Shown: positions 1 through 45,531 of the stretch, in pieces | Position numbering within the stretch: position 1 is the first letter of the stretch | How the letters are laid out: each line of letters begins with the position of its first letter | NCBI RefSeq assembly: GCF_027409185.1 | Contig: NC_084472.1 | Location: forward strand, 50,817,927 to 50,881,926 | Direction of reading: 5' to 3' | DNA from: Cynocephalus volans | Taxonomy: Eukaryota; Chordata; Mammalia; Dermoptera; Cynocephalidae | Length of the DNA stretch: 64,000 nt | Program-made: the position numbers and the translations under genes | Notes under the pieces: generated by a model | The model's input: the letters and a program-made list of their open reading frames with translations, nothing else | Told to the model about the DNA's origin: nothing | The model's database searches: none

Positions 1-3000
1 TACAATGTAGTGTTTTATTAGAAGAGCATAGCAGGGGCACCTGATTCAGGCTGCGCATGGAGAGTGAGGGTGAGGGAAGAAGTCCTGGAAGCTAAGATAG
101 CTAACCCGAGTCCTGAAACACTGAAGAGTTGTTATCTGAGGAAAGAACTTGTGGAGAGGCATTTTAGACAGAGGAAGCAGCATGTGCCAAAAACAAGGAA
201 GGTTGAGAATGTGGTGTATTCTAGGAACTTAATGCAAACTGTTCAGTATGATGAGAGGGCGGAATGAAGTGGGGATCAGTGCTGATGGACTTCATACCCG
301 TGAACGTATGTCACTCCAAGGGGTTTGGAAGTTCTCAGCAGGCAAGTCCCAGTAGCCAGGGATCAGGCAAGTCCCAGCAGCCAGAGATCAGGCTCCCAAT
401 TTAGTTCTGGCTAAGATAGGCCCAGCGTAATGGAACCGCACCTCTGGGCACAGGACATAAATGACTTCAACTGGTAGAGCCTGGATAAGTCAGGGGATGA
501 CATTTGGTTTTCATCTTAGTAACTACTATGTTGAGAATAATATAGTACTAAGTTGTGTCCCTGAAGATTTCTGTTTAAGCAAAAGAAGTGAGTTGTCTTG
601 ATTTAGTGTTTTGGTTATCTACAATTTCAGCACATTTACTTTAACCAAATGCTTGCCAAGTTTATGTGCAATTGCTTCATCTGCTTGTTGAGAGATCTGT
701 AAAATTAAGAGCATATCTGAAACTTAGATGCTACTTAATGAAATTTTGAAATTTCTATGATGGTTTGGTACTACTTCCATTGTTTTCAACATTTGGTTTA
801 TTAAATAAACTTAAAGACTAAAATTTTGCTACATGGAAAAATTTATTTCCTTTTTTTAAATGGAGAAACAATTAGACTAGTATTAATAAAATATTCCAAG
901 TGAATTTGTGATTGGTTGCTTCTTTGCAAAATTTTAGTAATATCAGAGGGAGAAGCCAGTCCAGTTTTAAGGACACTTGCCAAGGTTATTTCCAAGTTTT
1001 ATGTGCTCTGGGGCTGGAAATTAAGACTGGATATTTTATTGAAGAAATACCTTCTCTCTATCACAGCATGGCTATTGTTCTGTATATTAAGAAGGCTATG
1101 TGTTCTGATAATGTTTTAATAACAAATCATTCTGAATAATTCTAGAAGGTTGTTTTTCCAAAGAAATTTTCTAAATTATACTACCTTGTTACTTTGCTAG
1201 CTTTTCAATTTTATTTCATTAAAGAAATAAATACAGACAATAGTAGCAAATCACAGCAGCATTAAACCCCTTTTTAACACCATATTCTACAAACTTGAAT
1301 GGAGAATAAAATAGAATAGGATATACTAGACAAAACATAGTAAATAGAAAGTATATTGAATACATTGAAACTTGCTTGGGAAATTAAAGAGTAATTCCCA
1401 AATGGAAGTATTTTAGTTGGCAAATTTTCTGAATAGTAAAAAAACAAAACAAAACAACCACAACAACACTAAAAGCATTCACAGCTAACGTATTACTCAG
1501 GAACAGTTTAACAGACTTTCAGAAAGTCTTCTTTGGTGATATCCATCAAAGGAATAGGGTCTCTATTTTTTCTAGAATTTTCTGAGACTGGAGGAGAATG
1601 GCAAATCTGTTAGCTTCTTGCTGAGCCCTCATGGCCTCCTAATCACTAATGTCAAGAGGAGGTAGGATTCTAGAGGACGTCCTCAGGACAAGACGATGTA
1701 ATGAGAGAAGTTTAAGTTATAATCAGGGTAATTGCTTGAAAACATACAAATACATACAGGAGGTTCACTCATTTTATATATTTAGTAAGGATGTCTCCTT
1801 TAATTTTGTAGCAGACGATGCAAGTTTTAACAGAACTCCTCATCAATAATTTTATTTGGACTGGCAATAGGATATTGTTCTGACCAAGAGAAGAAAGCAA
1901 AGACGGAGTGGAGGGGATGAGTTCTGAGCAGGCAGCCCTTCACTTGATCCCTCTGTTTTCATGAAAATTCTTCAGCCATGCTCTTGGGTCTACCAGATGT
2001 CCCCAAGTCCAGAATCTTCTGATTTTGTTGAGGAATGTGGGCTGTGGGAGAGGAGCAGTTTCCCATACCCTGGTGGTCGTGATGGAGAAGGATGGAGGAA
2101 ACCCAGGGATTTAACTGCTCCTTAGAACAACCTAGAACCTCTTGTGTTTTCAGCAACTCCAATTCTCAGTTTTTCTGGGGTTCTGTAGAGCTAATTGGCT
2201 TGCTTTTGTTGGTTTCCCCTTCTACAGGCACCTGGATTTTCACTTTCTCCTCTCTGCAAAGTCAGTTGGTACTTACCCATCTGTTTTTCAAGCTTGCAAT
2301 TTATTATTGACATCTCGTGGGTTACTGTCAGTTCTCTCCTTGGTTCATGCTTTTAATATTTTTTATTTTTGTTTTAGTGGAAACCACTCAGACTGTGTTC
2401 TCTCTCTCTTCCTCTCCCAAAGGAAGAGAAGAATGATCATTAATGGCAAATGGCAGTTTCAGCGAAGCAACACCAGAAGCCAGCTTCATGCGCAGGAGAG
2501 AACGCTGCGCCTCCTCCTAGTGGTTTTCCAGGCTCTACACGTTCAGAGAAACTTCCTTGTAAAGAACTATAGAAATGATCCCCACTGCTAAATTTGACTT
2601 TCTTTAAAAAGAAAAAGAAAAAGATAAAGAAAGAAATAATCCCTGAAAGTATATATAGTCTTTGCTTTTAATAAATTTATTTCTATTTTTTAATCATTTA
2701 CTATCATTTTAGTGGGCTTTTGGAGGAAGCAGAAAGAAATGTAGTGTTCAATCCTCCATATTTAATTAGAAATCTCTAAAGCATTTTTTAAAAATTTCAA
2801 GGTGGTATGAGGGTTATCCCCTTTCTCTTTGCACATAGGATTGCCTCAGGGAGCAGGATTGTACAGAAATGTGTTTCTCATTGATGTAGAATGCAGTTGC
2901 GTGGGCATGTGCAGCAGAAAGTTGGGGTAGGTCCCCAAAAGGCTATTTGCATGATGTTTTGAGGACCTTCTTTAAAGGGATGTCATCCAAAGGGCAGAAC

Positions 3001-19202: not shown

Positions 19203-22200
19203 ACTAATATTTACTGATATTGCAGAAACAGAAAGAATCATTAGAGACTATTATAAACAATTATTTGCCAACAAATTGGAAAACCTGGAGGAAATGGATA
19301 ACTTTCTGGACACATGAACCTACCAAGACTGAACGAAGAAGAAGTAGAAAATGCGAATAGACCAATAACAAGTAATGAGATTGAATCAGCAATCAGCAGT
19401 CTCCCTACAAAGAAACGCTTGGGACTGGGTGGCTTCACTCTTGAATTTTACCAAACTTTCAAAGAAGAATTAATACCAATTCTTCTCAACTATTCAAATA
19501 TTCTCCAAAACTCATTCTATGCAGTCAGCATTACTCTGGCATCCAAATCAGAAAAGGACACAACAGAATAGAAAGCTATAGGCCAATATTCCCAATGAAC
19601 ATAGATGCAAAAATTCTCAGCAAAATACTAGAAAACCAAATTCAACATCATATTAAAAAAATTATGTACCATGAGCAAGTGAGATTTACCCCAGGAATGC
19701 AAGGATGGTTCAACATATACAAATCAATAGAAGTGATACACTATATCAACAGAATAACTGACAAAAACAATGTGATCACCCCAGTAGACACAGGAAAGAC
19801 ATTTGATAAAATTCACCATCCCTTCATGATAAAAACTCTTAACAAACTAGGTACAGAAGGAAAGTATTGCAATGCAATAAAGGCTATATATGATAAACCT
19901 ACAGCTAACATTACACTAAATGGCACAAAGGTGTAGACTTTTCCTCTAAGAACAAGAAGAAGACAAGGATGCCCACTGTCACCACCTTTGTTTAACATAG
20001 TACTAGAAGTTCTAGCCAGAGCAATTAGACAAGAGAAGAAATAAAGGACACCCAAATTGGAAAAAGAGGAAGTCAAAGTATCACTGTTTACAACAACATG
20101 GTCTTATGTATAGAAAAACCTGGACTCCACTCCAAAAATCTTAGAACTGATGAACAAATTCAGTAAAGTTGCAGGATACAAAATCAACATACAAAAATCA
20201 GTAGGGTTTCTATACATCAACAATGACCTAGCAGGAAAAGAAGTGAAGAAAGCAAGCCCATTTACCATAGCTACCCCCAAAATAAAATATCTAGGAATAA
20301 ATTTAACCAAGGAGGTGAAAGATCTCTACAACAAAAACTACAAAACACTGATGAAAGAAATTAAAGAGGACACCAAAAAAATGGAAAGACATTCCATGTT
20401 CATGGACTGGAAGAATTAATACTGTCAAAATGACCATACTACCCAAAGCAATCTACAGATTCAATGCAATCCTTATCAAAATACTAATGAGGGGCCAGCC
20501 CCGTCGCTCACTTGGGAGAGTGCGGTGCTGTTAGCACCAAGGCCACAGGTTCGGATCCTATATAGGGATGGCCCATGCGCTCACTGGCTGAGTGTGGTGC
20601 GGACGACACCGAGCCAAGGGTTGCAATCCCCTTACTGGTCAAAAAAAAAAAAAATACTAATGACATTCTTCACAGAAATATAAAAAAACAATCCTAGAAT
20701 TCACAGGGAACCACAAAAGACCCTGAATAGCCAAATCAATCCTGGGCAAAAAGAACAAAGCTGGAGGCGTTATGCTTTCTGGATTCAAGATACACTACAA
20801 AGCTATAGTAATCAAAACAGATGGTACTGGCATAAAAACAGACACATGGAACAAAGGAGCAGCATAGAGAACCCAGAAATAAATCCATGTATCTATCTAT
20901 AGTCAACTGATCTTTGACAAAGGCTCCTAGAACGTACACTGGGGAAAGGACAGCCTCTTCAATACATGGCACTGGGAAAACTGGATATCCATATGCAGAA
21001 GAAAGAAACTAGATGCTTACCTTCTTCCCTATACCAAAATCAACTCAAAATGGATTAGAGACTTAAATATAAGACATGAAGCTATAAAATTACTAGAAGA
21101 AACATAGGGAAAACACTCTAAGACATTGGTCTGGGCAAAATTTTGTGGACAAGATTGCTAAAACACAGGCAGTAAAAGCAAAAATAGATATATGGGATTA
21201 TATCAAGTTAAAAAGCTTCTGCACAGCAAAAGAAGTAATCAACAGAACAAAGGGAACCAACAGAATGAGATAAAATATTTGCAAACTACTCTTCCAATAA
21301 GGGATTAATATCCAGAATATACAAGAAACTCAGATAACTCAACAGCAAAACAAACAAACAAACAAACAAATAAATAAAAATAATAATAACAATAATAATA
21401 ATATGATTTAAAAAGTGTACAAATGAGCTGAATAGATATTTCTCAGGAGATATTAGATAACCAACAAGGGATATGAAAAAGCGCTGAACATCACTAATCA
21501 TCAGAAAAATACAAATTTAAACTACAATGAGATATCATCTCACCCAAGTTAGAATGGCTATTATCAAAAAGACAGAAGATAACAAATGCTGGTGAGGATG
21601 TGGAGAAAAGGAAACTCTCATACACTGTTGGTGGGAATGTAAATTAGTACAGCCATTATGGAAAACAGTATGGAGGTTTCTCAAAAAAGTAAAAATAGAG
21701 CTATCATATGATCCAGCAATCCCATTGCTAGGTATTTATTCAAATGAAAGGAAATTAGCATACTGAAGAGATATTTATTGCAGCACTATTCACAATAGCC
21801 AAGATATAGAATCAACCTAGGTGTCCGTTGACAGATGAATGGATAAAGAAAATGTGGTACTTATACACAGTGGAATACTACTCAGCCATAAAAAAGAATA
21901 CAATCTTGTTACTTGCAGCAACGTGGATGAACCTGGAGGATGAAAGATCTCAATAATAAGGAACTAAATAATAATAATAAGTTGAACTCTTAAAAGTTGA
22001 CAGTAGAATTGTGGTTACTGGTGGCTGGGGAGGGAGATAGGGAGAGGTTGGATGATGGACACAAAATTAAAGCTATATAAGAAAAATAAATTCTAATGGT
22101 ATACAGTAGTACTAGGCATCTGTAATTAACAATAATTTACTGTGTGTTATCAAATGGCTAGAAGAGAGGAATTCAAATGTTCTCATCACAAAGAAATGAT

Positions 22201-36562: not shown

Positions 36563-36868
36563 TGGGAGCACTTGTACAAATCAGTTTACATTTTTCATCT
36601 TTCTCTACCTTTTAAGTAGAAAAAGTAAAATTTAAATCCATTTTTTATTTCCCTAGAATTATAAAGAAATAGTTCACAGTTCATATCTTGAACAACTTGA
36701 ATAAATTAACAGCACAAGTGTTATTAATATTGCTCAAAGTATCAGACTCTGAAGAAGTTGTAGGAGCAAAGGATGACCTTGAAAGACCCCTGGAGTAGGC
36801 GGTCAGTCGGTCTGGAGACCCTCCCAAGGAACAGCGAGACCACGAGGACGGATGCAAATAGCAAGAGG

Positions 36869-36874
36869 TTTATT
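36869..36874 (-). terminator. Polyadenylation signal AATAAA in 3' LTR
   Basis: AATAAA on the minus strand (plus 'tttatt'), about 50 bases after the presumed R start, as usual in gammaretroviral LTRs. This copy would serve the proviral transcript; the same signal stands in the 5' LTR at 44321-44326. Confidence 0.85.
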
Positions 36875-37078
36875 GATCACACGGGTACCCGGGCGACTCA
36901 GTCTCTTGGAAGACTGGCGCGCCGAGTAGAGCTCCTGGGTCCTTTTTATAGCAAAAAGCGCGGGTACAGAAGCGAGAAGCGAGTTTAATTGGTCAGTTCA
37001 AATAAGCGCGGGTACAGAAGCGAGAAGCGAGTTTAATTGGTTAGTTTGAATCAAGCCAGGGGTGAACTTCGGTCAAGT

Positions 37079-37365
37079 GGGAGTCCTTGAAACAGCTGAG
37101 GGGCACTCTTGAAACTGGTGGGAGTCCTTGAAACAGCTGAGGGGCACTCTTGAAACTGGTGGGAGTCCTTGAAACAGCTGAGGGGCACCCTGGAAACTGG
37201 TGGGAGTCCTTGAAACAGCTGAGGGGCACCCTGGAAACTGGTGGGAGTCCTTGAAACAGCTGAGGGGCACCCTGGAAACTGGTGGGAGTCCTTGAAACAG
37301 CTGAGGGGCACCCTGGAAACTGGTGGGAGTCCTTGAAACAGCTGAGGGGCACCCTGGAAACTGTT
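37079..37365 (-). repeat. Seven 41-bp tandem repeats in 3' LTR U3
   Basis: Copies start at 37079, 37120, 37161, 37202, 37243, 37284 and 37325 on the plus strand. The two leftmost read 'cactcttgaaactgg', the other five 'caccctggaaactgg', so two subtypes exist. Each unit contains CAGCTG, an E-box core. The array occupies the place where gammaretroviral enhancers lie. Confidence 0.9.
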
Positions 37366-37552
37366 GTCGATTTATCTAGTTCTGCCCTTGGCCTCGGGCG
37401 GAGGCCCAGGTGCATGACCACAGATATCCTGTTCGTTATCTGGTCTCAACCTCAGGCTGTACTTTTCCTATGCTAGGGACTTTTAACCAGGGTAATGTTT
37501 TGTGCCTTGCAAAATGGCGTTGCTACGGCTAGCTTAAAAAGTTCCTTCTTCA

Positions 37553-37571
37553 TTCCCCCATTTCTTTTGTG
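37553..37571 (-). promoter_or_regulatory. Polypurine tract
   Basis: On the minus strand a purine run, 'aaaagaaatgggggaa', ends directly at the 3' LTR start. It primes plus-strand DNA synthesis in retroviruses. It looks intact. Confidence 0.9.
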
Positions 37572-37595
37572 GATAGCTCTAATCTTAGAGCGGAG

Positions 37596-38807
37596 TTAAA
37601 AGTTATTTTCATTATCTATAGTCTGATATTTTTGTCTAAGAACCAGGACCTTAATTGTACTTATTCTATCATTGATGAATTGGACTAACCTGTTGATGAC
37701 ACAGGGCCCCAGAATGAGCAACAGAAGAAGGAGTACTAGGGGCCCGATGATGGTTGATAGTGGGGTAGTGAACCAAGGGGAGCTATTGAACCATCCTTCA
37801 TAGTAGGGGGGGCTTATGGCCAGACAGAGCCAGCAATGTTCTGTGGCGTTTGGGTTGGTGGCATTTAGAGCTAGGAAGGCCCCCTGTACAAGACCAAAGA
37901 GCCTGTCACCCGTGGTGGGGGGTAGAGTGCCTGGTGATAGGAGGCTCTGTGTAGCAGTGCTCCTTTGTGCCGCGGGGGGTTGCCTGCTAGTCATTGGGAA
38001 CAGCTTGTTGCTAGGAGGTCCCTGTTCTGCAAGGACGGGGTCGGGGCCCACTGCCACAGTTGGCATATTGGTGATATCTAGGCGAATGGTGAACAGTACA
38101 CCTGGATCGTTTCCCGTCAAATAGAACCTCAGTCCCCAGGTTCTTCCTTGTGCCCAATCTCTGGAATTTTTTCCTTTCTCTGTGAATTTTATTTTAAGGG
38201 GGTTACACCAGCCGGTGTTGTCACAGTTTTTACTGCTATCGTTACGTTCTACAGTTATGAGGTCCCATGAGGAACTAGGTCCCCAGTAGACTGTCCCCGT
38301 TGTTTCACAACCCCATTCTTTGCAATATAGAGATTCTAGCCCTCCGCACCTTCTAGCTTCTGAAAGGGTCCGGCCATCCCGGGGGCACACGTAGAAGGGG
38401 GAAGCGGCAAGCCTGTTTCTAGCTCGGGGATAGCTGCACCCTGGGACCCCCCAGGTGATCTGATTATAAGCTTTTGTATAGTCTGAATCAGGGGGTCTGA
38501 TCTGGGCCGAGCCCGATGCTATGTATCCCGGGATATCCCAGGTCTCAATACCCGCCGCCAGGGCACATACATCAGGTTTAAGATCGGGCCACCAAGTCCA
38601 AGGCGGCTGGGTAGCCTGTTTGGTCCAGACAACTTCTCCAGTTTGGGACAGTACCTTCCAGGTGAGGATCACAGGCCGGTGGGGGTTCTTACCCGGTGGA
38701 CTCATCTTTCCGCCGCCGAATACGCAGCTTAAGAGGATGATCAGTCCTTTCCAGCTCCCAGGTCTCGTTTGGTGCCGGGGGTGGTGCAGGCTTGAGATGG
38801 GAAGCAT
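37596..38807 (-). CDS. env: Gammaretroviral Env with internal deletion (SU amino-part fused to TM anchor)
   Basis: One open frame of about 403 codons from the methionine at 38807; the frame is open back to 38831. Known gammaretroviral Env is about 640-670 residues: SU binds the receptor and TM fuses membranes. Seen here, numbered from 38831: a signal peptide with hydrophobic core near residues 30-40, the receptor-binding region with paired cysteines up to about 210, a proline-rich region with 'PPTTGDR', and the CWLC motif at 333-336. About ten residues later the text passes straight into the TM stem ('WFNSSPWFTT'), the membrane segment (about 362-380) and the cytoplasmic tail with 'RQKYQ'. 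Missing are the SU carboxy half, the furin site, fusion peptide, heptad/immunosuppressive region and CX6CC. The frame is kept across the junction near 37795-37802. It overlaps the pol end by about 119 bases. It would make an anchored, fusion-dead receptor-binding protein if expressed (inference). Confidence 0.9.
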   Translation of the reverse strand: MLPISSLHHPRHQTRPGSWKGLIILLSCVFGGGKMSPPGKNPHRPVILTWKVLSQTGEVVWTKQATQPPWTWWPDLKPDVCALAAGIETWDIPGYIASGSAQIRPPDSDYTKAYNQITWGVPGCSYPRARNRLAASPFYVCPRDGRTLSEARRCGGLESLYCKEWGCETTGTVYWGPSSSWDLITVERNDSSKNCDNTGWCNPLKIKFTEKGKNSRDWAQGRTWGLRFYLTGNDPGVLFTIRLDITNMPTVAVGPDPVLAEQGPPSNKLFPMTSRQPPAAQRSTATQSLLSPGTLPPTTGDRLFGLVQGAFLALNATNPNATEHCWLCLAISPPYYEGWFNSSPWFTTPLSTIIGPLVLLLLLLILGPCVINRLVQFINDRISTIKVLVLRQKYQTIDNENNF

Positions 38808-41800
38808 GGACCCAGGCAGCGATGCCATCAACTTTTACTGCGGTCGGGGTGGTCAGCAATACCAGATACGGGCCTTTCCACCGAGGCTCAAGGTTGCTGG
38901 GTCGATGGCGTCTGACCAGCACTCGGTCTCCGACCTGGAACGGGTGGGGGACAGCTATGGTACCGGGCTGATATGTCTCTTTGATCTGGTCCCAAATCTG
39001 GGTCTTCACAACTTCTAGAGCCTTTAAGTGGGTAAATAAGACAGGGAGAAAATTATCATCGGGACCCAGTGTTTCTCCCAACTCAAGTATGGGGGGGGTC
39101 CCCCGTAGAGGATTTCATAGGGAGTTAGACCGAACTGGCCAGGGGTATTCCTGGCTCTGAACAGCGCTAAGGGAAGGAGGGCCACCCAGTCTTTTCCACC
39201 GGTCTCTAAGGCCAATTTAGTTAAGGTCTCTTTGATGGTTCTATTCATTCTCTCTACTTGACCTGAGCTCTGGGGCCTATACGCACAATGTAACTTCCAA
39301 TTTATCCCCAGTTGTGTGGCCAGTCCCTGGCTTACCTGAGCAACAAAGGCTGGGCCATTATCTGACCCGATCACCTTAGGGATCCCGAAACGGGGCAGGA
39401 TTTCTTCTAGTATCTTTTTACATACAGTCAGGGCCGTTTCCGTTTTGGTAGGAAAAGCTTCTACCCATCCAGAGAAAGTATCTACAAATACTAGCAGATA
39501 CTTGTTCCCATACCGGCCAGGCTTTACCTCTGTAAAGTCTACTTCCCAGTATACGCCGGGTCGATCTCCCCGTTGTCTTTTTCCGGTCTCTCGGTAGGTG
39601 GTAGCCGCATTAGTCATGGCGCAAGCTGGACACCGATTGGCGACTTCTTGAACAGTGGACCGGAGGTTCGGGATGGAGAGGCTGGTGCGGCTTGCCAGTT
39701 GAAGGAGCTTTTCTGGTCCTAAGTGTGTTAGCTGGTGTAACCGCTGAATGAATTCCTTTCCCTGGTCAGGAGTGAGCTCTCCTGGCCTGGTCTTAGCTTG
39801 AGCAGGCTCGATTGGCTCTTGAAGCTTTATAGTTTCTGCTAGCACCCTGACCGACAGGGCGGCTTGTTTTGCAGCCTCGTCGGCCCTCCGGTTCCCGGCC
39901 GCCACAGGGTTATTTCCTCTCTGGTGGCCCGGGCAGTGGATAATGGCGACCTGCTTAGGGAGGTGAATGGCCTCTAGCAGAGCCAGAATTTCTTGTTTAT
40001 TTTTAATGTCTTTTCCAGCAGAAGTGAGCAGTCCCCTCTGTTTATATATTGCCCCATGAATGTGAGCAGTGGCAAAAGCATACCTGCTGTCCGTGTAGAT
40101 ATTGATGTTTTTTCCTTCGGCTAGGCGTAATGCCTGCGTCAAGGCGATTAGCTCGGCCTTCTGGGCTGATGTCCCTTCTGGCAGGCTGCTTGCCCATACC
40201 GTCCGTTTGCCATCTACGATGGCGGCCCCTGCTTTCTTCTTACCTTCCGCAATGAAGCTGCTACCGTCTGTATACCAGGCAGGCACTCCGGGCAATGGCT
40301 GGTCCTTCAGGTCCCGTCGAGTCCCAGCTTCTTCAGCAAGGATTTCTGAGCATTGGTGTACTGGGGTGGATTCTGACTCGACTGGTAGTAGGGTAGCTGG
40401 GTTCAGGACAGCAGGGGGCGCGAAAGATATTCTTTCGTTTAGCAGCAAACTCTGGTAATGAGTCATTCTGGCATTGGTCATCCACCGATTGGGGGGCTGC
40501 CGCACGATACTTTCGAGGCTGTGGGAAGCAATCACAGTCACATTTTGCCCCAAGGTTAACTTATCAGCGTCTTTGAGGAGGAGTGCCACTGCAGCAACCG
40601 CTTTTAGGCAGGTTGGCCACCCACTGGCCACTGGATCCAGTTTTTTTGATAGATAAGCTACTGGCCGTCGCCATGGTCCTAGGGTCTGAGTAAGCACTCC
40701 TCGGGCTACACCGGCTCTTTCATCTACGTACAGAGTAAATGATTTGGTGAGGTCTGGGAGAGCCAAGGCGGGGGCAGACAGCAAGGCTTTTTTTTATGTG
40801 GTCAAAAGCCTTTTGATGCTCCTCAGTCCAGGTAAAAGGAATGTTTTCCCTTGTCAGGGGGTACAAGGGTGCAGCCAGGGAAGCAAACCCAGGAATCCAG
40901 AGCCTGCAGAATCCGGCAGTACCCAGAAATTCGCGGACCTGCCTGGGGGTTGTGGGAGTAGGGATCTTCATAACTGTAGCTTTCCGGGCCGGGGTCAGCC
41001 ATCTTTTTCCCTCCTTGAGCAGGTACCCCAAATAGGTGACCTCTTTCTGGCATAACTGGGCCTTTTTAGCTGATACCCGGTACCCCAACTTACTCAGTTC
41101 CTGCAAGAGCTTCTGTGTCCCTCTTTTGCAGCCTTCATATGTGGGAGCTGCCACTAGGAGGTCGTCCACATATTGGAGTAATATGACCTGTGGGTTGAGA
41201 GCCCTAAAAGGAGCTAAATCTCGGTGGAGGGCCTCATCGAAGAGAGTGGGAGAATTTTTGAACCCCTGTGGCAGCCGTGTCCAGGTCAGCTGACCTGTGT
41301 TACCTTTTTCTGGGTCTCTCCACTCGAACGCGAACAGTGGCTGGCTGTTGGGGTGTAGTCTGAGGCAAAAAAAGGCATCCTTGAGATCCAGGACTGAGTA
41401 CCAAGTGTGACTAGGCGGAAGGGAACTCAGGAGGCTGTATGGATTTGGGACCGTGGGATGAATGTCTTGCACCCTTTTGTTAATTTCTCTCAAGTCTTGG
41501 ACTGGCCGATAGTCATTGGTCCCTGGCTTTTTTACTGGTAGCAGAGGGGTGTTCCAGGGCGATTGGCAGGGCACTAAGACCCCTAGGTCTAAGAACCTTT
41601 GGATGTGGGGTCTGATGCCTTCCCGGGCTTCTTTAGTCATTGGATACTGTCGGACGGCCACCGGTGAGGCACCTGATTTCAGCTCTACTACTACTGGTGG
41701 GACGTTATTGGCCAGTCCCATACCTGTCTTTTCTGCCCATACGGTGGGAAAAAGTTGGAGCCAGGATGGGTCGATGGAGGGAGAGGCCGGCTTTTCATAC

Positions 41801-42186
41801 AGCCGGTATTCTTCTTCTAGGTTTAGGACCAGGCACATGGTAGAGTGATCTCCCCATGTTACTTGTGGGCCCTCTGTGGAAAACTGGATTTGAGCCTTTA
41901 GTTTGGTCAGGATGTCCCGGCCCAACAGAGGAGCAGGGCACTCAGGTATGACCAAAAAGGAATGGGTCACTTGCCTATGTCCGACCCTTAAAAGTCTCTG
42001 AGTGGTCCAGGGGTAGACTTTGCTGCCGGTCGCTCCTACTACGACTGTCCGCCTGGACCCTACCTTCCCCATGGGTTGGGTCAGCACCGAATGTTCAGCC
42101 CCGGTATCGACCAGAAACTCGATGGGGGTCCCCTCCACTGTCAATGTTACCCTAGGTTCGGGGAGGGGGTCCGAACCTTGACTCCC
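38689..42186 (-). pseudogene. pol: Gammaretroviral pro-pol, two frame changes
   Basis: Protease, reverse transcriptase, RNase H and integrase in order, about 1166 codons, entered from gag by amber readthrough in the same frame. Visible residues: protease active site 'LVDTGAEHS' (42114-42088 region), RT 'LPQGFKNSP' and YVDD at 41161-41172, RNase H acidic set in 'YTDGSSF', 'AELIAL', 'YTDSRYA' and 'NRRADEAA', integrase zinc motif 'HQLTHLG...CPAC' and the DDE set in 'VDFTEV', 'GSDNGPAF' and 'GQVERMNR'. The frame changes within an 8-base T run (40788-40795), between RT and the connection, and within an 8-base G run (39091-39098), in the integrase carboxy end. No in-frame stop interrupts the pieces otherwise. 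The carboxy end overlaps env. Strength of family assignment is very high. Confidence 0.93.
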
Positions 42187-42189
42187 CTA
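42187..42189 (-). promoter_or_regulatory. Amber readthrough codon at gag-pol junction
   Basis: TAG on the minus strand follows two aspartate codons and is followed by 'gggagtcaaggt', with the protease frame continuing in phase. Gammaretroviruses make Gag-Pol by suppressing this stop, helped by a downstream pseudoknot. I did not fold the RNA. Confidence 0.85.
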
Positions 42190-42406
42190 GTCGTCTAGGG
42201 ATAGAACCCTAGCTTTTTTGTCGTTTTTCTTTTTTCGGGGGCATTCCCTTGCCCAGTGGCCTTTCTCTTTGCAGTAGGCGCACTGGTCCCTGTCGAGAGG
42301 AGGCCTTTTGTCCCTAGGTGTCGGTCTTGCCCGGTTGCTCAGGGTCCCTTTCTGCTTATCTGTAAACCTTTTATCACTTACTACTGTGGCCAAAATCCTA
42401 GTTAAA

Positions 42407-42428
42407 TTTTTTTTTTTTTTTTTTTTTT
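42407..42428 (+). repeat. 22-base homopolymer in gag
   Basis: An uninterrupted T run on the plus strand, A in the gag sense, at the capsid-nucleocapsid boundary. The reading frame of gag changes across it. Confidence 0.95.
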
Positions 42429-43766
42429 GGCGTTTATCACGCCGTCTCTCTCTCTCTTCTGTCTCTTTTTTTCTCTTTCCTGTCTTTCTTCTTCTGTTTC
42501 TCTCTTGTGGTACACCTTTTCTGCCTCCTTTACTAAGTCTTGTAAGGAAAAGTCTTGGAGCCCCTCTAGTCTTTGTAACCTTTTTTTAATGTCTGGGGCT
42601 GACTGGCCGATAAAGGCCATGGCAACTGCCGCCTGCTGTCCCTCAGAAGAGGGGTCAAACGGAGTGTATCTCCTATATGCCTCCATCAGGCGTTCCAAGA
42701 AAACCGAGGGGGGTTCTACTGGTCCCTGCAAGATCTCTCTTACCTTAGCCAAATTGGTGGGGCGCCGGGCTGCCCCTTTGAGACCTGCCACTAGAGTCCG
42801 GCGGTAGACCAGAAGACGCTCCCTACCTTCGGCCGTGTTGTAATCCCATTGAGGTCGATTGAGGGGGAAAGCCTCATTAATGAGGTTCTCGAGTTGTGTA
42901 GGGGCCCCGTTATCCCCGAGAACGTTCTTGCGGGCCTCCAGAAGAATCCTTTCTCGCTCTTCAGTGGTGAAGAGGATCTGGAGTAGCTGTTGGCAATCGT
43001 CCCAAGTGGGCTGGTGAGAGAACATAAGGGACTCAAGAAGTCCCGTGAGTCCTGCTGGTTTTTCAGAAAAAGAAGGATGGTTAGACTTCCAATTGTAAAG
43101 ATCTGCTGAGGAAAAAGGCCAATACTGCAAAGGGACCAAGCCATTTGGCTCGGCTGGGGGCCCTATGGCTCGGAGGGGCAAAGCTACGGTGGAGTCAGGA
43201 CCCGAGTCGCCTCTCGGACTGCGAGGTTGGCGGCTCCTAGTCCCCGCAGCCGGTCCCTCAGGGTTGGGGTCACTGGGTGCTCGTCCTGGTGCCGATCTGT
43301 TTGGTTGAGGGGCCAGAGGGGGCAGCGGAGCCGCCGGGTAAGGTGGGGGTTCAGAGAGGGAAAATAGGTCATCTGGTGTCGGGAGGACGGGGGGTTGGGG
43401 AGGGGCGGAAGGCTTCCTTGTAGGTGGCCTTTGAGTATTTTCTGATCCCGAAACAACAGCGACTTTGCTGGAGGGTGGCACCCAGGGAGGGGGATTCTGG
43501 GCGAGGTCTTGCCATACCACGACATATGCAACCTGGTCCGGGTGTCCTCCGATCTCCTGGAAAACAATCTTTTTAACTGCAAAAATGACAGAAAGGTCAA
43601 AGGTTCCCTCTGGCGGCCAACCTACGCCGAATGTGGGCCACTCAGACGAACAGAAAGTCTGCCATTTTCCTTTTTTGATCTCCATGGACAGATTGTGAGC
43701 CCTGGCTTTGACATCTTTCCAATGATCTAGAGTAAGGGAGAGAGGCGTAAGGGCACCTTGCCCCAT

Positions 43767-44051
43767 CTCGAAAATTTCCAATAGGGGAACGACGACGCAA
43801 AGACCTATCACAGCTAAGACAAAAAGAAACCAGAAACGGCGACGAGACCGAGTGCCGTAGAAATAGAAAAAAGAGTCCGATGGCAGAGCGCGCCTCCCGA
43901 GACGCGGTGAGACCAAAACACAATAATCCTCTGCCAAGGGGTCCACCAGGCGTCCCTGGTCCTCCCCTGATCCTGGGACGTCTCCCAGGATTGCCGGGTG
44001 GCGAGCCCCCGAACACGTCTGTTCGCTACCCGCACTTCGCTCCCAGAGCGA
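43767..44051 (-). CDS. Glyco-Gag-like leader in frame with gag
   Basis: The frame upstream of the gag ATG is open for 95 codons, back to a TAG at 44052-44054. It has no ATG, but CTG codons occur at 43988-43986 and 43949-43947; gammaretroviral glyco-Gag is known to start at a CUG. Residues about 37-56 of the part after 43946 ('[20 protein letters not shown]') form a hydrophobic signal-anchor after a basic cluster 'RSRRR', as expected for a type II membrane form of Gag. In murine leukaemia virus this form aids release and counters host factors. Which CTG is used here is an inference. Confidence 0.6.
43978..43990 (-). promoter_or_regulatory. Part of packaging/dimerisation leader
   Basis: The minus strand reads 'cctgggagacgt', then 'cccagg', a short palindromic block that recalls a conserved element in the gammaretroviral packaging region. 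It lies between splice donor and gag, where the packaging signal is expected. Confidence 0.45.
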
Positions 44052-44165
44052 CTAACCCGGAACAAACTGAAACCAAAATGCGCGCACTCAGAAAGACAGT
44101 CAGAGTCACAGGATTAGACACAGAAACGAGACACAGAAACGAGACACAGAACGACTGCTGGCCAG

Positions 44166-44173
44166 CTTACCTC
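44166..44173 (-). promoter_or_regulatory. Major splice donor
   Basis: The minus strand reads 'gggaggtaagctggc', a strong 5' splice site (AG|GTAAGC) about 40 bases after the primer binding site. It matches the place and form of the donor used for env mRNA in gammaretroviruses. I did not locate the acceptor with confidence. Confidence 0.8.
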
Positions 44174-44211
44174 CCGTTGGTGGGTCGGTGGTCCCTGGGT
44201 GGGGGTCTCAG

Positions 44212-44229
44212 ATCCCGGACGAGCCCCCA
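44212..44229 (-). promoter_or_regulatory. tRNA-Pro primer binding site
   Basis: TGGGGGCTCGTCCGGGAT on the minus strand, two bases after the 5' LTR end. It is the 18-base proline tRNA primer site of gammaretroviruses, with no mismatch that I can see. Confidence 0.95.
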
Positions 44230-44394
44230 AATGAAAGACCCCTGGAGTAGGCGGTCAGTCGGTCTGGAGACCCTCCCAAGGAACAGCGAGACCACGAGGA
44301 CGGATGCAAATAGCAAGAGGTTTATTGATCACACGGGTACCCGGGCGACTCAGTCTTTTGGAAGACTGGCGCGCCGAGTAGAGCTCCTGGGTCC

Positions 44395-44402
44395 TTTTTA
44401 TA
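44395..44402 (-). promoter_or_regulatory. TATA box of proviral promoter
   Basis: TATAAAAA on the minus strand, about 25 bases before 'gcgcgccagtcttcc', the likely cap and R start. CCAAT motifs stand upstream at 44440-44444 and 44488-44492. Confidence 0.85.
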
Positions 44403-44409
44403 GCAAAAA

Positions 44410-44505
44410 GCGCGGGTACAGAAGCGAGAAGCGAGTTTAATTGGTCAGTTCAAATAAGCGCGGGTACAGAAGCGAGAAGCGAGTTTAATTGGTTAGTTTG
44501 AATCA
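44410..44505 (-). repeat. Two 48-bp direct repeats with CCAAT box
   Basis: Copies at 44410-44457 and 44458-44505. Each carries 'gcgcgggtacagaagcgag' on the plus strand and a CCAAT box on the minus strand. They differ at a few bases near the unit ends. The same pair is present in the 3' LTR (36958-37053). Confidence 0.85.
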
Positions 44506-44530
44506 AGCCAGGGGTGAACTTCGGTCAAGT

Positions 44531-44817
44531 GGGAGTCCTTGAAACAGCTGAGGGGCACTCTTGAAACTGGTGGGAGTCCTTGAAACAGCTGAGGGGCACT
44601 CTTGAAACTGGTGGGAGTCCTTGAAACAGCTGAGGGGCACCCTGGAAACTGGTGGGAGTCCTTGAAACAGCTGAGGGGCACCCTGGAAACTGGTGGGAGT
44701 CCTTGAAACAGCTGAGGGGCACCCTGGAAACTGGTGGGAGTCCTTGAAACAGCTGAGGGGCACCCTGGAAACTGGTGGGAGTCCTTGAAACAGCTGAGGG
44801 GCACCCTGGAAACTGTT
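44531..44817 (-). repeat. Seven 41-bp tandem repeats in 5' LTR U3
   Basis: The same seven copies and the same order of the two subtypes as in the 3' LTR, so the array had this form in the infecting or retrotransposing genome. It lies about 190-470 bases into U3. Confidence 0.9.
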
Positions 44818-45004
44818 GTCGATTTATCTAGTTCTGCCCTTGGCCTCGGGCGGAGGCCCAGGTGCATGACCACAGATATCCTGTTCGTTATCTGGTCTCA
44901 ACCTCAGGCTGTACTTTTCCTATGCTAGGGACTTTTAACCAGGGTAATGTTTTGTGCCTTGCAAAATGGCGTTGCTACGGCTAGCTTAAAAAGTTCCTTC
45001 TTCA

Positions 45005-45531
45005 ACCTTATTACAAAACAGGCACCTAGAAGATGGATAAGGCATCTTCTGACCTGGATTCTTAAGACCAAAGGAGGCAGAGAGGAAAGCAAACTATATG
45101 CAAAATTATCCTTACTTAGAAAATATATTAAAAAATTAGGTTCTTTATCTGCAAATATGTTTATCAGTTTGTGAGATCTTTCCTCAAATATAGTTTTAAA
45201 CTTTTTATAAATCTAAAACATACATACAGAAATGTATACAAAATATGTATAGGATAATGAATTGTCTCACACTGAACACACCAGCTCCCAATTCAAGAAA
45301 TAAAACATTACCTGTACCTCAGAAGTCCATTGCCTGACCCCATCTAAGCTCTACCACCTGAAGGTGGTATCTATCTGGTTTCTAATACCAAGTATTAGTT
45401 TTGCCTGTTTTTAAACTTGGTATGAATAGAATCATGCAGTATTGTATTCTTATGTGTCTGTCTTCTTTCATTGATACCTTGTTTTTGACCTTCATCTACT
45501 TTCCTGTGAGTAGTTGTAGTTCATCCATTCT
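45005..45531. other. Unique DNA and possible old L1-type 3' sequence
   Basis: 45005-45008 is the right copy of the proviral target duplication. About 45180-45531 ('atacagaaatgtatacaaaa', 'gaatagaatcatgcagtatt') resembles the minus strand of an old L1-type 3' region and seems to resume after the MST LTR. Confidence 0.4.

What the first reader, a model, noticed from the sequence alone, without database searches (positions are those of the whole stretch)
36780..45004. Very young KoRV/GALV-like endogenous gammaretrovirus
Seen: both LTRs are 773 bp and differ at one base (36905/44357), ends are intact, and the acct duplication is perfect. Known: LTRs are identical at insertion, so about 0.13% divergence means a recent event, likely well under one million years at usual mammalian rates. 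Env SU text is nearest, by my recognition, to koala retrovirus and gibbon ape leukaemia virus. If the host is a colugo or another South-East Asian mammal, this bears on where that virus group circulated.
Basis: partly seen in the sequence, partly recalled or inferred. Interest (0 to 1): 0.9.

Follow-up and report, generated by a model that had tools for sequence, protein, structure and literature searches.

The report
Young defective colugo retrovirus, family published
A recently inserted, damaged relative of gibbon ape leukaemia virus and koala retrovirus lies in the genome of the Philippine flying lemur; its family was described in 2025, and this copy belongs to a small sub-family that lost part of its envelope gene yet kept spreading.

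Summary
In detail: two 773-bp LTRs differ at one base, with a perfect 4-bp target duplication. The host is Cynocephalus volans (its Env gene model matches 100% over 655 aa). In an Env SU tree the copy sits in a colugo-only branch inside the GALV/KoRV-like clade, probably sister to the rest. The family is already published as CynVolERV (PMC11928578); motifs place this copy in group B, B2-like. It is defective: the frame is lost in gag, RT and integrase at the only three mononucleotide runs of 8 or more, and env has a 750-bp in-frame deletion. A genome scan finds 16 places with that junction. Five copies, this one included, show no substitution over 2,061 bp, yet their 3' LTRs hold 3, 6, 7, 6 and 3 copies of a 41-bp U3 unit. 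In 9 of 9 measured pairs both LTRs hold the same number. Most likely a defective lineage was copied very recently in trans, its enhancer array changing faster than its bases. What may be new is detail: the shared in-frame env truncation and the array.

The parts
36780..45004 (-). Whole provirus, CynVolERV group B (B2-like), defective
44232..45004 (-). 5' LTR, 773 bp
   Evidence: orientation from primer site and domains
36780..37552 (-). 3' LTR, 773 bp, one private change at 36905
36776..36779 (.). target site duplication ACCT (provirus 3' side)
45005..45008 (.). target site duplication ACCT (provirus 5' side)
44529..44815 (-). U3 array of the 5' LTR: seven copies of a 41-bp unit, one CAGCTG E-box per unit
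   Evidence: E-box name recalled
37077..37363 (-). U3 array of the 3' LTR: seven copies of the 41-bp unit
44212..44229 (-). primer binding site of tRNA-Pro type
   Evidence: identity recalled
37553..37568 (-). polypurine tract
   Evidence: recognised by recall
42405..43766 (-). gag, ATG to frame loss: Gag_MA and Gag_p30 (found in the longer open piece 42405-43946), motifs PQPPVL and PPPY
42407..42428 (-). poly(A) run in gag where the frame is lost; run length differs between copies
42128..42189 (-). gag/pol readthrough pseudoknot with the gag TAG stop
   Evidence: (RF01073, 72.7 bits)
40723..42186 (-). pol piece 1: protease and reverse transcriptase
39027..40793 (-). pol piece 2: RNase H and integrase core
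38692..39114 (-). pol piece 3: integrase C-terminal domain (MLVIN_C)
37596..38828 (-). truncated env ORF, 410 aa: receptor-binding domain with CETTG, then hydrophobic anchor and tail
37793..37794 (-). junction of the 750-bp in-frame env deletion, at TGAAGG direct repeats

Best explanation
It is a CynVolERV group B provirus of the Philippine flying lemur, inserted very recently (point estimate 0.3 Myr for this copy, 0.04 Myr pooled). It belongs to a sub-family, 16 places found, whose env has an in-frame 750-bp deletion. Shown: the shared deletion, near-identical bodies in most copies, separate insertion sites, equal U3 arrays within each measured provirus. Inferred: the deletion arose by a reverse transcriptase jump between short repeats. 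The defective RNA was packaged and copied in trans by proteins of intact relatives. The 41-bp U3 enhancer array, and probably the mononucleotide runs, change length during those cycles.
For: Family: Env SU clade 100/98; host test; group B motifs PQPPVL, PPPY, CETTG against the paper's scheme. Youth. Trans copying: the env junction is at 16 places, 0 in the reversed control. 12 of these, the window included, are identical over 561 bp across it. 5 have 0 substitutions over 2,061 bp. Of 11 sister copies, 8 differ from the window by 0-2 substitutions in a 601-bp gag piece too. Insertion sites carry different target duplications. Array change before integration: unit numbers 3-7 between copies, equal in both LTRs in 9 of 9 pairs. 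10 of 14 undeleted relatives have one unit.
Against: Gene conversion between LTRs could also equalise pairs and lower the age; the authors of PMC11928578 say so too. The frame losses in RT and integrase sit in 8-base runs and could be consensus errors. Not all bodies are alike: in the gag piece L016 is only 88% identical (54 mismatches), L018 matches only downstream of the poly(A) run, and L015 does not match at the place read. L012 and L016 have LTR lengths off the 41-bp ladder. The deleted copies are not clearly one clade: left of the junction the window is closer to undeleted copies (2 of 327 differ) than to L021 or L023 (6 and 9), right of it the reverse. So recombination, or repeated deletion at the same repeats, is also involved. 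No read data were available.
Confidence: 0.87

Rival explanations
1. An older provirus whose LTRs were made alike by gene conversion between its own or related LTRs, so that the LTR clock understates its age.
For: Known process, raised by the family's authors. Sub-lineages bearing the same deletion differ from the window group by up to 66 of about 2,060 bases.
Against: Five copies at separate sites have no substitution over 2,061 bp of IN-env, outside the LTRs; conversion of LTRs does not explain that. Target duplications are intact in 7 of 8 measured.
Confidence: 0.08
2. An autonomous, intact virus that entered the germ line and is only made to look broken by sequencing or assembly errors.
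For: All three frame losses lie in the only three mononucleotide runs of 8 or more in the 6.7-kb interior. The same runs vary between copies.
Against: The 750-bp env deletion is found at 16 places. The gag poly(A) run ranges from 7 to 22 bases over ten copies, a spread wider than consensus error would likely give.
Confidence: 0.07
3. Host duplication, not retrotransposition, multiplied the sub-family.
For: Bodies show no substitution over 2 kb in five copies.
Against: Target duplications differ between copies; the host flanks of the window copy each match only their own place; the 16 copies lie on 9 contigs.
Confidence: 0.01
4. The truncated Env is kept because it works as a membrane-tethered receptor blocker against incoming GALV-like virus.
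For: The deletion is exactly in frame; 13 of 16 copies keep the 410/411-aa ORF. It holds a receptor-binding domain and a hydrophobic anchor but no RX[K/R]R cleavage site; a signal peptide was not tested. dN/dS is 0.24-0.33 between deleted sub-lineages. Precedent: soluble truncated feline ERV Env blocks GALV, KoRV-A and HPG (PMC11019853, abstract only).
Against: dN/dS to an undeleted copy is much the same, 0.33-0.34, so the constraint may predate the deletion. 3 of 16 copies have lost the ORF. The copies are so young that open frames prove little.
Confidence: 0.12

Closest known systems
CynVolERV-B2 (Tsangaras, Mayer, Greenwood, Sci Rep 2025, PMC11928578)
   Same: Same host species, gag motifs PQPPVL and PPPY, env CETTG, near-identical LTR pairs, position by the GALV-like viruses. 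The paper reports 18 of 158 B2 copies with env deletions of variable length.
   Different: No difference at family level. Its main text has 0 uses of tandem, enhancer, homopolymer or frameshift and describes LTR indels without naming a unit. The shared 750-bp in-frame deletion is not described in the parts I read; supplements could not be read.
CynVolERV-B1
   Same: Env-deleted group B relatives in the same genome.
   Different: B1 has a 1487-nt env deletion, a 133-nt RNase H deletion in most copies, and no CETTG. The window has a 750-bp deletion, a near-complete RNase H match and CETTG.
Gibbon ape leukaemia virus, koala retrovirus, HPG and MmGRV bat viruses
   Same: Same clade in the Env SU tree.
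   Different: Env SU 64-71% identical; the window branch lies outside the fork that holds these viruses (support 89/82), and the window copy is defective.
PERV 39-bp and KoRV 18-nt U3 enhancer repeats
   Same: Tandem enhancer units in U3 whose number varies between proviruses or strains (passages of PMC4036542, and PMC4379569).
   Different: Unit is 41 bp, with 3-7 copies in the deleted sub-family. The variation is seen between endogenous copies with no substitution over 2 kb.
FeLIX, truncated feline endogenous Env (PMC11019853)
   Same: Defective ERV env product whose action rests on receptor binding (abstract).
   Different: FeLIX is soluble and tested; the colugo ORF keeps a hydrophobic anchor and is untested.

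Membership tests
Gammaretrovirus | gag-pro-pol-env order with MLV-type Gag_MA, Gag_p30, MLVIN_C, TLV_coat | tested here: met
Gammaretrovirus | gag UAG stop with readthrough pseudoknot | tested here: met
Gammaretrovirus | tRNA-Pro primer site, TG...CA LTRs, 4-bp target duplication | tested here: met
   primer identity recalled
GALV/KoRV-like clade | groups with GALV, KoRV, HPG, MmGRV against other gammaretroviruses in Env | tested here: met
   17-row clade, support 100/98
GALV/KoRV-like clade | same placement in Pol | not tested
   no named Pol of this group was fetched; the viral-contig scan gave none
CynVolERV group B | PQPPVL in place of PRPPIY in Gag, in the C. volans genome | tested here: met
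CynVolERV-B2 | CETTG present in env | tested here: met
CynVolERV-B2 | listed in the authors' copy table | not testable with these tools
CynVolERV-B1 | 1487-nt env deletion (179 of 182 in the paper), no CETTG | tested here: not met
   750-bp deletion and CETTG present
CynVolERV-B1 | 133-nt RNase H deletion (131 copies in the paper) | tested here: not met
   RNase_H profile positions 6-140 of 141 matched
Env-derived restriction factor | protein expressed and blocks entry | not testable with these tools
   no expression or assay data for single copies

The most novel reading that the evidence does not exclude
In the middle of an ongoing or just-finished germline invasion, one in-frame deletion turned env into a membrane-tethered receptor-binding protein without fusion machinery. 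It has spread to at least 16 loci across at least three sub-lineages and is an emerging receptor-interference gene against the invading GALV-like viruses. The enhancer array, grown from one unit to as many as seven, raised its expression.
Probability: 0.1. Interest if true: 0.7.

Novelty: already known. Interest (0 to 1): 0.35.

Why it matters
[quoted passage not shown] that point is already in print. The detail added here makes two things testable. One is whether defective copies spread in trans during an early invasion. The other is whether U3 repeat number can order copies that base changes cannot separate.

Tried and rejected
Plus-strand reading of genes: only short open stretches with many stops; the genes are on the minus strand. 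Splicing as the cause of the env deletion: the edges are TGAAGG direct repeats, not splice sites. Private integrase frame loss, as I first noted: wrong, L017 shares it. A 62-base growth of the gag poly(A) run in L018, as I first read: withdrawn, because upstream of the run L018 does not match the provirus, so another insertion is likely there. Viral contig scan for Pol relatives: none. Empty site in the assembly: none; each flank matches only its own place. Host genes near the insertion: of the 6 stop-to-stop ORFs of 120 aa or more outside the provirus, none matched a host domain and one a reverse transcriptase; exons shorter than that were not sought. Genome-wide count of the 41-bp unit: not completed. 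The Env tree does not settle whether all colugo Envs are one clade (AU p 0.134).

Full report
OBSERVATION. The two LTRs (36780-37552 and 44232-45004) are 773 bp each and differ only at 36905/44357. Both are flanked by ACCT. The provirus lies on the minus strand: a tRNA-Pro-type primer site touches 44232, a polypurine tract touches 37552, and the Pfam matches read on the minus strand.

ANATOMY. Minus-strand pieces: gag with Gag_MA and Gag_p30; protease and RT; RNase H and integrase; integrase C-terminus; a short env. The gag TAG at 42187 carries the known readthrough pseudoknot RF01073 at 72.7 bits. The frame is lost three times, in gag, RT and integrase. Each loss falls in one of the only three mononucleotide runs of 8 or more bases in the interior. 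Run lengths vary between copies. The gag poly(A) is 22 in the window and 7-21 in nine of the eleven others. L018 has 62 A there, but upstream of them it does not match the provirus, so another insertion is likely. L015, which has a large interior deletion, does not match at the place read. The integrase state of the window is shared by 1 of 11 other copies (L017), the RT state by 2 of 10 (L010, L014). These may be reverse-transcriptase slips or consensus errors; the poly(A) range looks too wide for error alone.

ENV. Against 12 of the 14 undeleted relatives fetched, exactly 750 bp are missing between two TGAAGG direct repeats, in frame; the other two give 751 and 793. The 410-aa product keeps the SU receptor-binding domain (PDB chain 9fqt_B, named Surface protein, E 1.4e-46, and 1aol, GP70; murine origin recalled), CETTG and one CXXC. 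It then jumps to a hydrophobic, membrane-spanning-type stretch and tail; no RX[K/R]R site is left. A pattern across the junction, allowing two mismatches, is found at 16 places in the genome and 0 times in the reversed control. The ORF is open in 13 of these 16; L012, L013 and L016 have lost it. Of 14 undeleted relatives fetched, 11 have an open 661-aa env.

HOST. The C. volans Env gene model P0004 matches the held genome at 100% over 655 aa. Its recorded contig is 304,471,933 bases and the genome's C1 is 304,468,691, close but not equal. I take the host as Cynocephalus volans, the Philippine flying lemur.

PLACEMENT. A maximum-likelihood tree of Env SU (25 rows, 392 columns) puts the window with three other colugo rows at 100/99. 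Together with GALV, KoRV, HPG, MmGRV, the other colugo Envs and two unnamed proteins it forms a 17-row clade at 100/98, apart from squirrel, bat, MDEV, orca, feline and murine Envs. The fork that makes the window branch sister to the other 13 rows has 89/82 only. SU identity: GALV 70-71%, KoRV 64-67%, HPG 66%, MmGRV 65%. Long outgroup branches were flagged. Whether all colugo Envs form one clade is undecided (AU p 0.134). Gag is nearest to C. volans gene models (96%, over 54-76% of the query), an unnamed sequence (87%) and SaGRV (84%), against 73% for the Mus caroli Gag. Pol was not placed by tree.

ALREADY IN PRINT. Tsangaras, Mayer and Greenwood (Sci Rep 2025, PMC11928578; I read parts 1-4 of 6 of the text, and the passages) describe 434 such proviruses in C. 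volans. Their groups are A, B1, B2 and C, with LTR ages near zero and GALV-like placement. By motif (PQPPVL, PPPY, CETTG) the window is group B, B2-like, and not B1. A search for CynVolERV finds only that paper; other searches are. The supplements could not be read, so I cannot say whether this copy is in their list.

AGE. One difference gives 0.29 Myr, 95% 0.007-1.64. Nine pairs pooled (the window plus eight) give 0.037 Myr, 95% 0.001-0.21, at the paper's rate of 2.2e-9 (CpG sites not left out, unlike the paper). Three of the eleven sister copies (L012, L016, L018) were not measured because the script did not find both LTR ends.

THE U3 ARRAY. In 10 of the 12 copies identical over 561 bp, LTR lengths step by 41 bp: 609, 650, 691, 732, 773. 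That is 3 to 7 copies of one 41-bp unit, each with one CAGCTG; the window has the most of these, seven. The other two, L012 and L016, have four units but lengths off this ladder, so other indels occur. In 9 of 9 measured proviruses both LTRs have the same number, so the change came before or during integration, unless conversion equalised them later. Five copies (L009, L010, the window, L015, L018) have no substitution over 2,061 bp of IN-env but 3, 6, 7, 6 and 3 units in the 3' LTR. All 16 deleted copies have 3 or more units. Of 14 undeleted relatives 10 have one unit and 4 have 3-6; these 14 are the ones fetched out of 24 listed, not a random draw. A family member outside the sub-family (L007/L008) also shows seven. 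KoRV and PERV show the same kind of variation with other units (passages only).

HOW IT WORKS. Shown: a young insertion, shared defects, separate sites. Inferred: packaging and copying of a defective RNA by proteins of intact relatives in the same genome (67 of the 68 Env matches listed have no stop; the paper reports full-length ORFs too). The family is a mosaic. In a 601-bp gag piece 8 of 11 sister copies differ from the window by 0-2 substitutions, but L016 is only 88% identical. The window is nearer to undeleted copies left of the env junction and to deleted ones right of it, so template switching between co-packaged RNAs, or repeated deletion at the same repeats, is likely. dN/dS in the truncated env is 0.24-0.33 between deleted sub-lineages, but 0.33-0.34 to an undeleted copy as well. 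Selection on the truncated form is therefore not shown.

VERDICT. Correct observation, correct reading, already published family. The added detail is modest but testable.

Noticed in passing
window 2383-2600 (-): Full-length match to U3 small nucleolar RNA, 125.8 bits; gene or pseudogene not decided.
   Followed up: no
window 19448-19936 (+): Reverse transcriptase fragment (RVT_1) in a 162-aa open stretch, probably of a LINE (LINE type inferred).
   Followed up: no
window 44116-44151: Tandem 13-bp unit, 2.8 copies, in the provirus leader.
   Followed up: no
window 36952-37046 and 44404-44498: A second, 48-bp duplication in each LTR downstream of the 41-bp array, with a CCAAT in each copy.
   Followed up: no
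G000 C1:23169945-23171909 (L039): A proviral Env open frame is named in a public annotation as solute carrier family 23 member 2 isoform X1 of C. volans (P0004): a gene-model error or a fusion transcript.
   Followed up: partly
L072 (C2:221799134-221799734), copy L018: A 62-base run of A in gag, with sequence that does not match the provirus upstream of it and no 5' LTR at the expected place: a second insertion into this copy is likely.
   Followed up: partly
L015, C3:159014311-159020041: Sister copy with a further interior deletion of about 2.4 kb but identical LTRs and target duplication; possibly the pol-deleted class of the paper.
   Followed up: partly
P0121 and P0007: Unnamed database sequences on contigs of up to 7,991 and 7,944 bases with Gag 87% and Env 69% identical to the window: GALV-like viruses of unknown host.
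   Followed up: no
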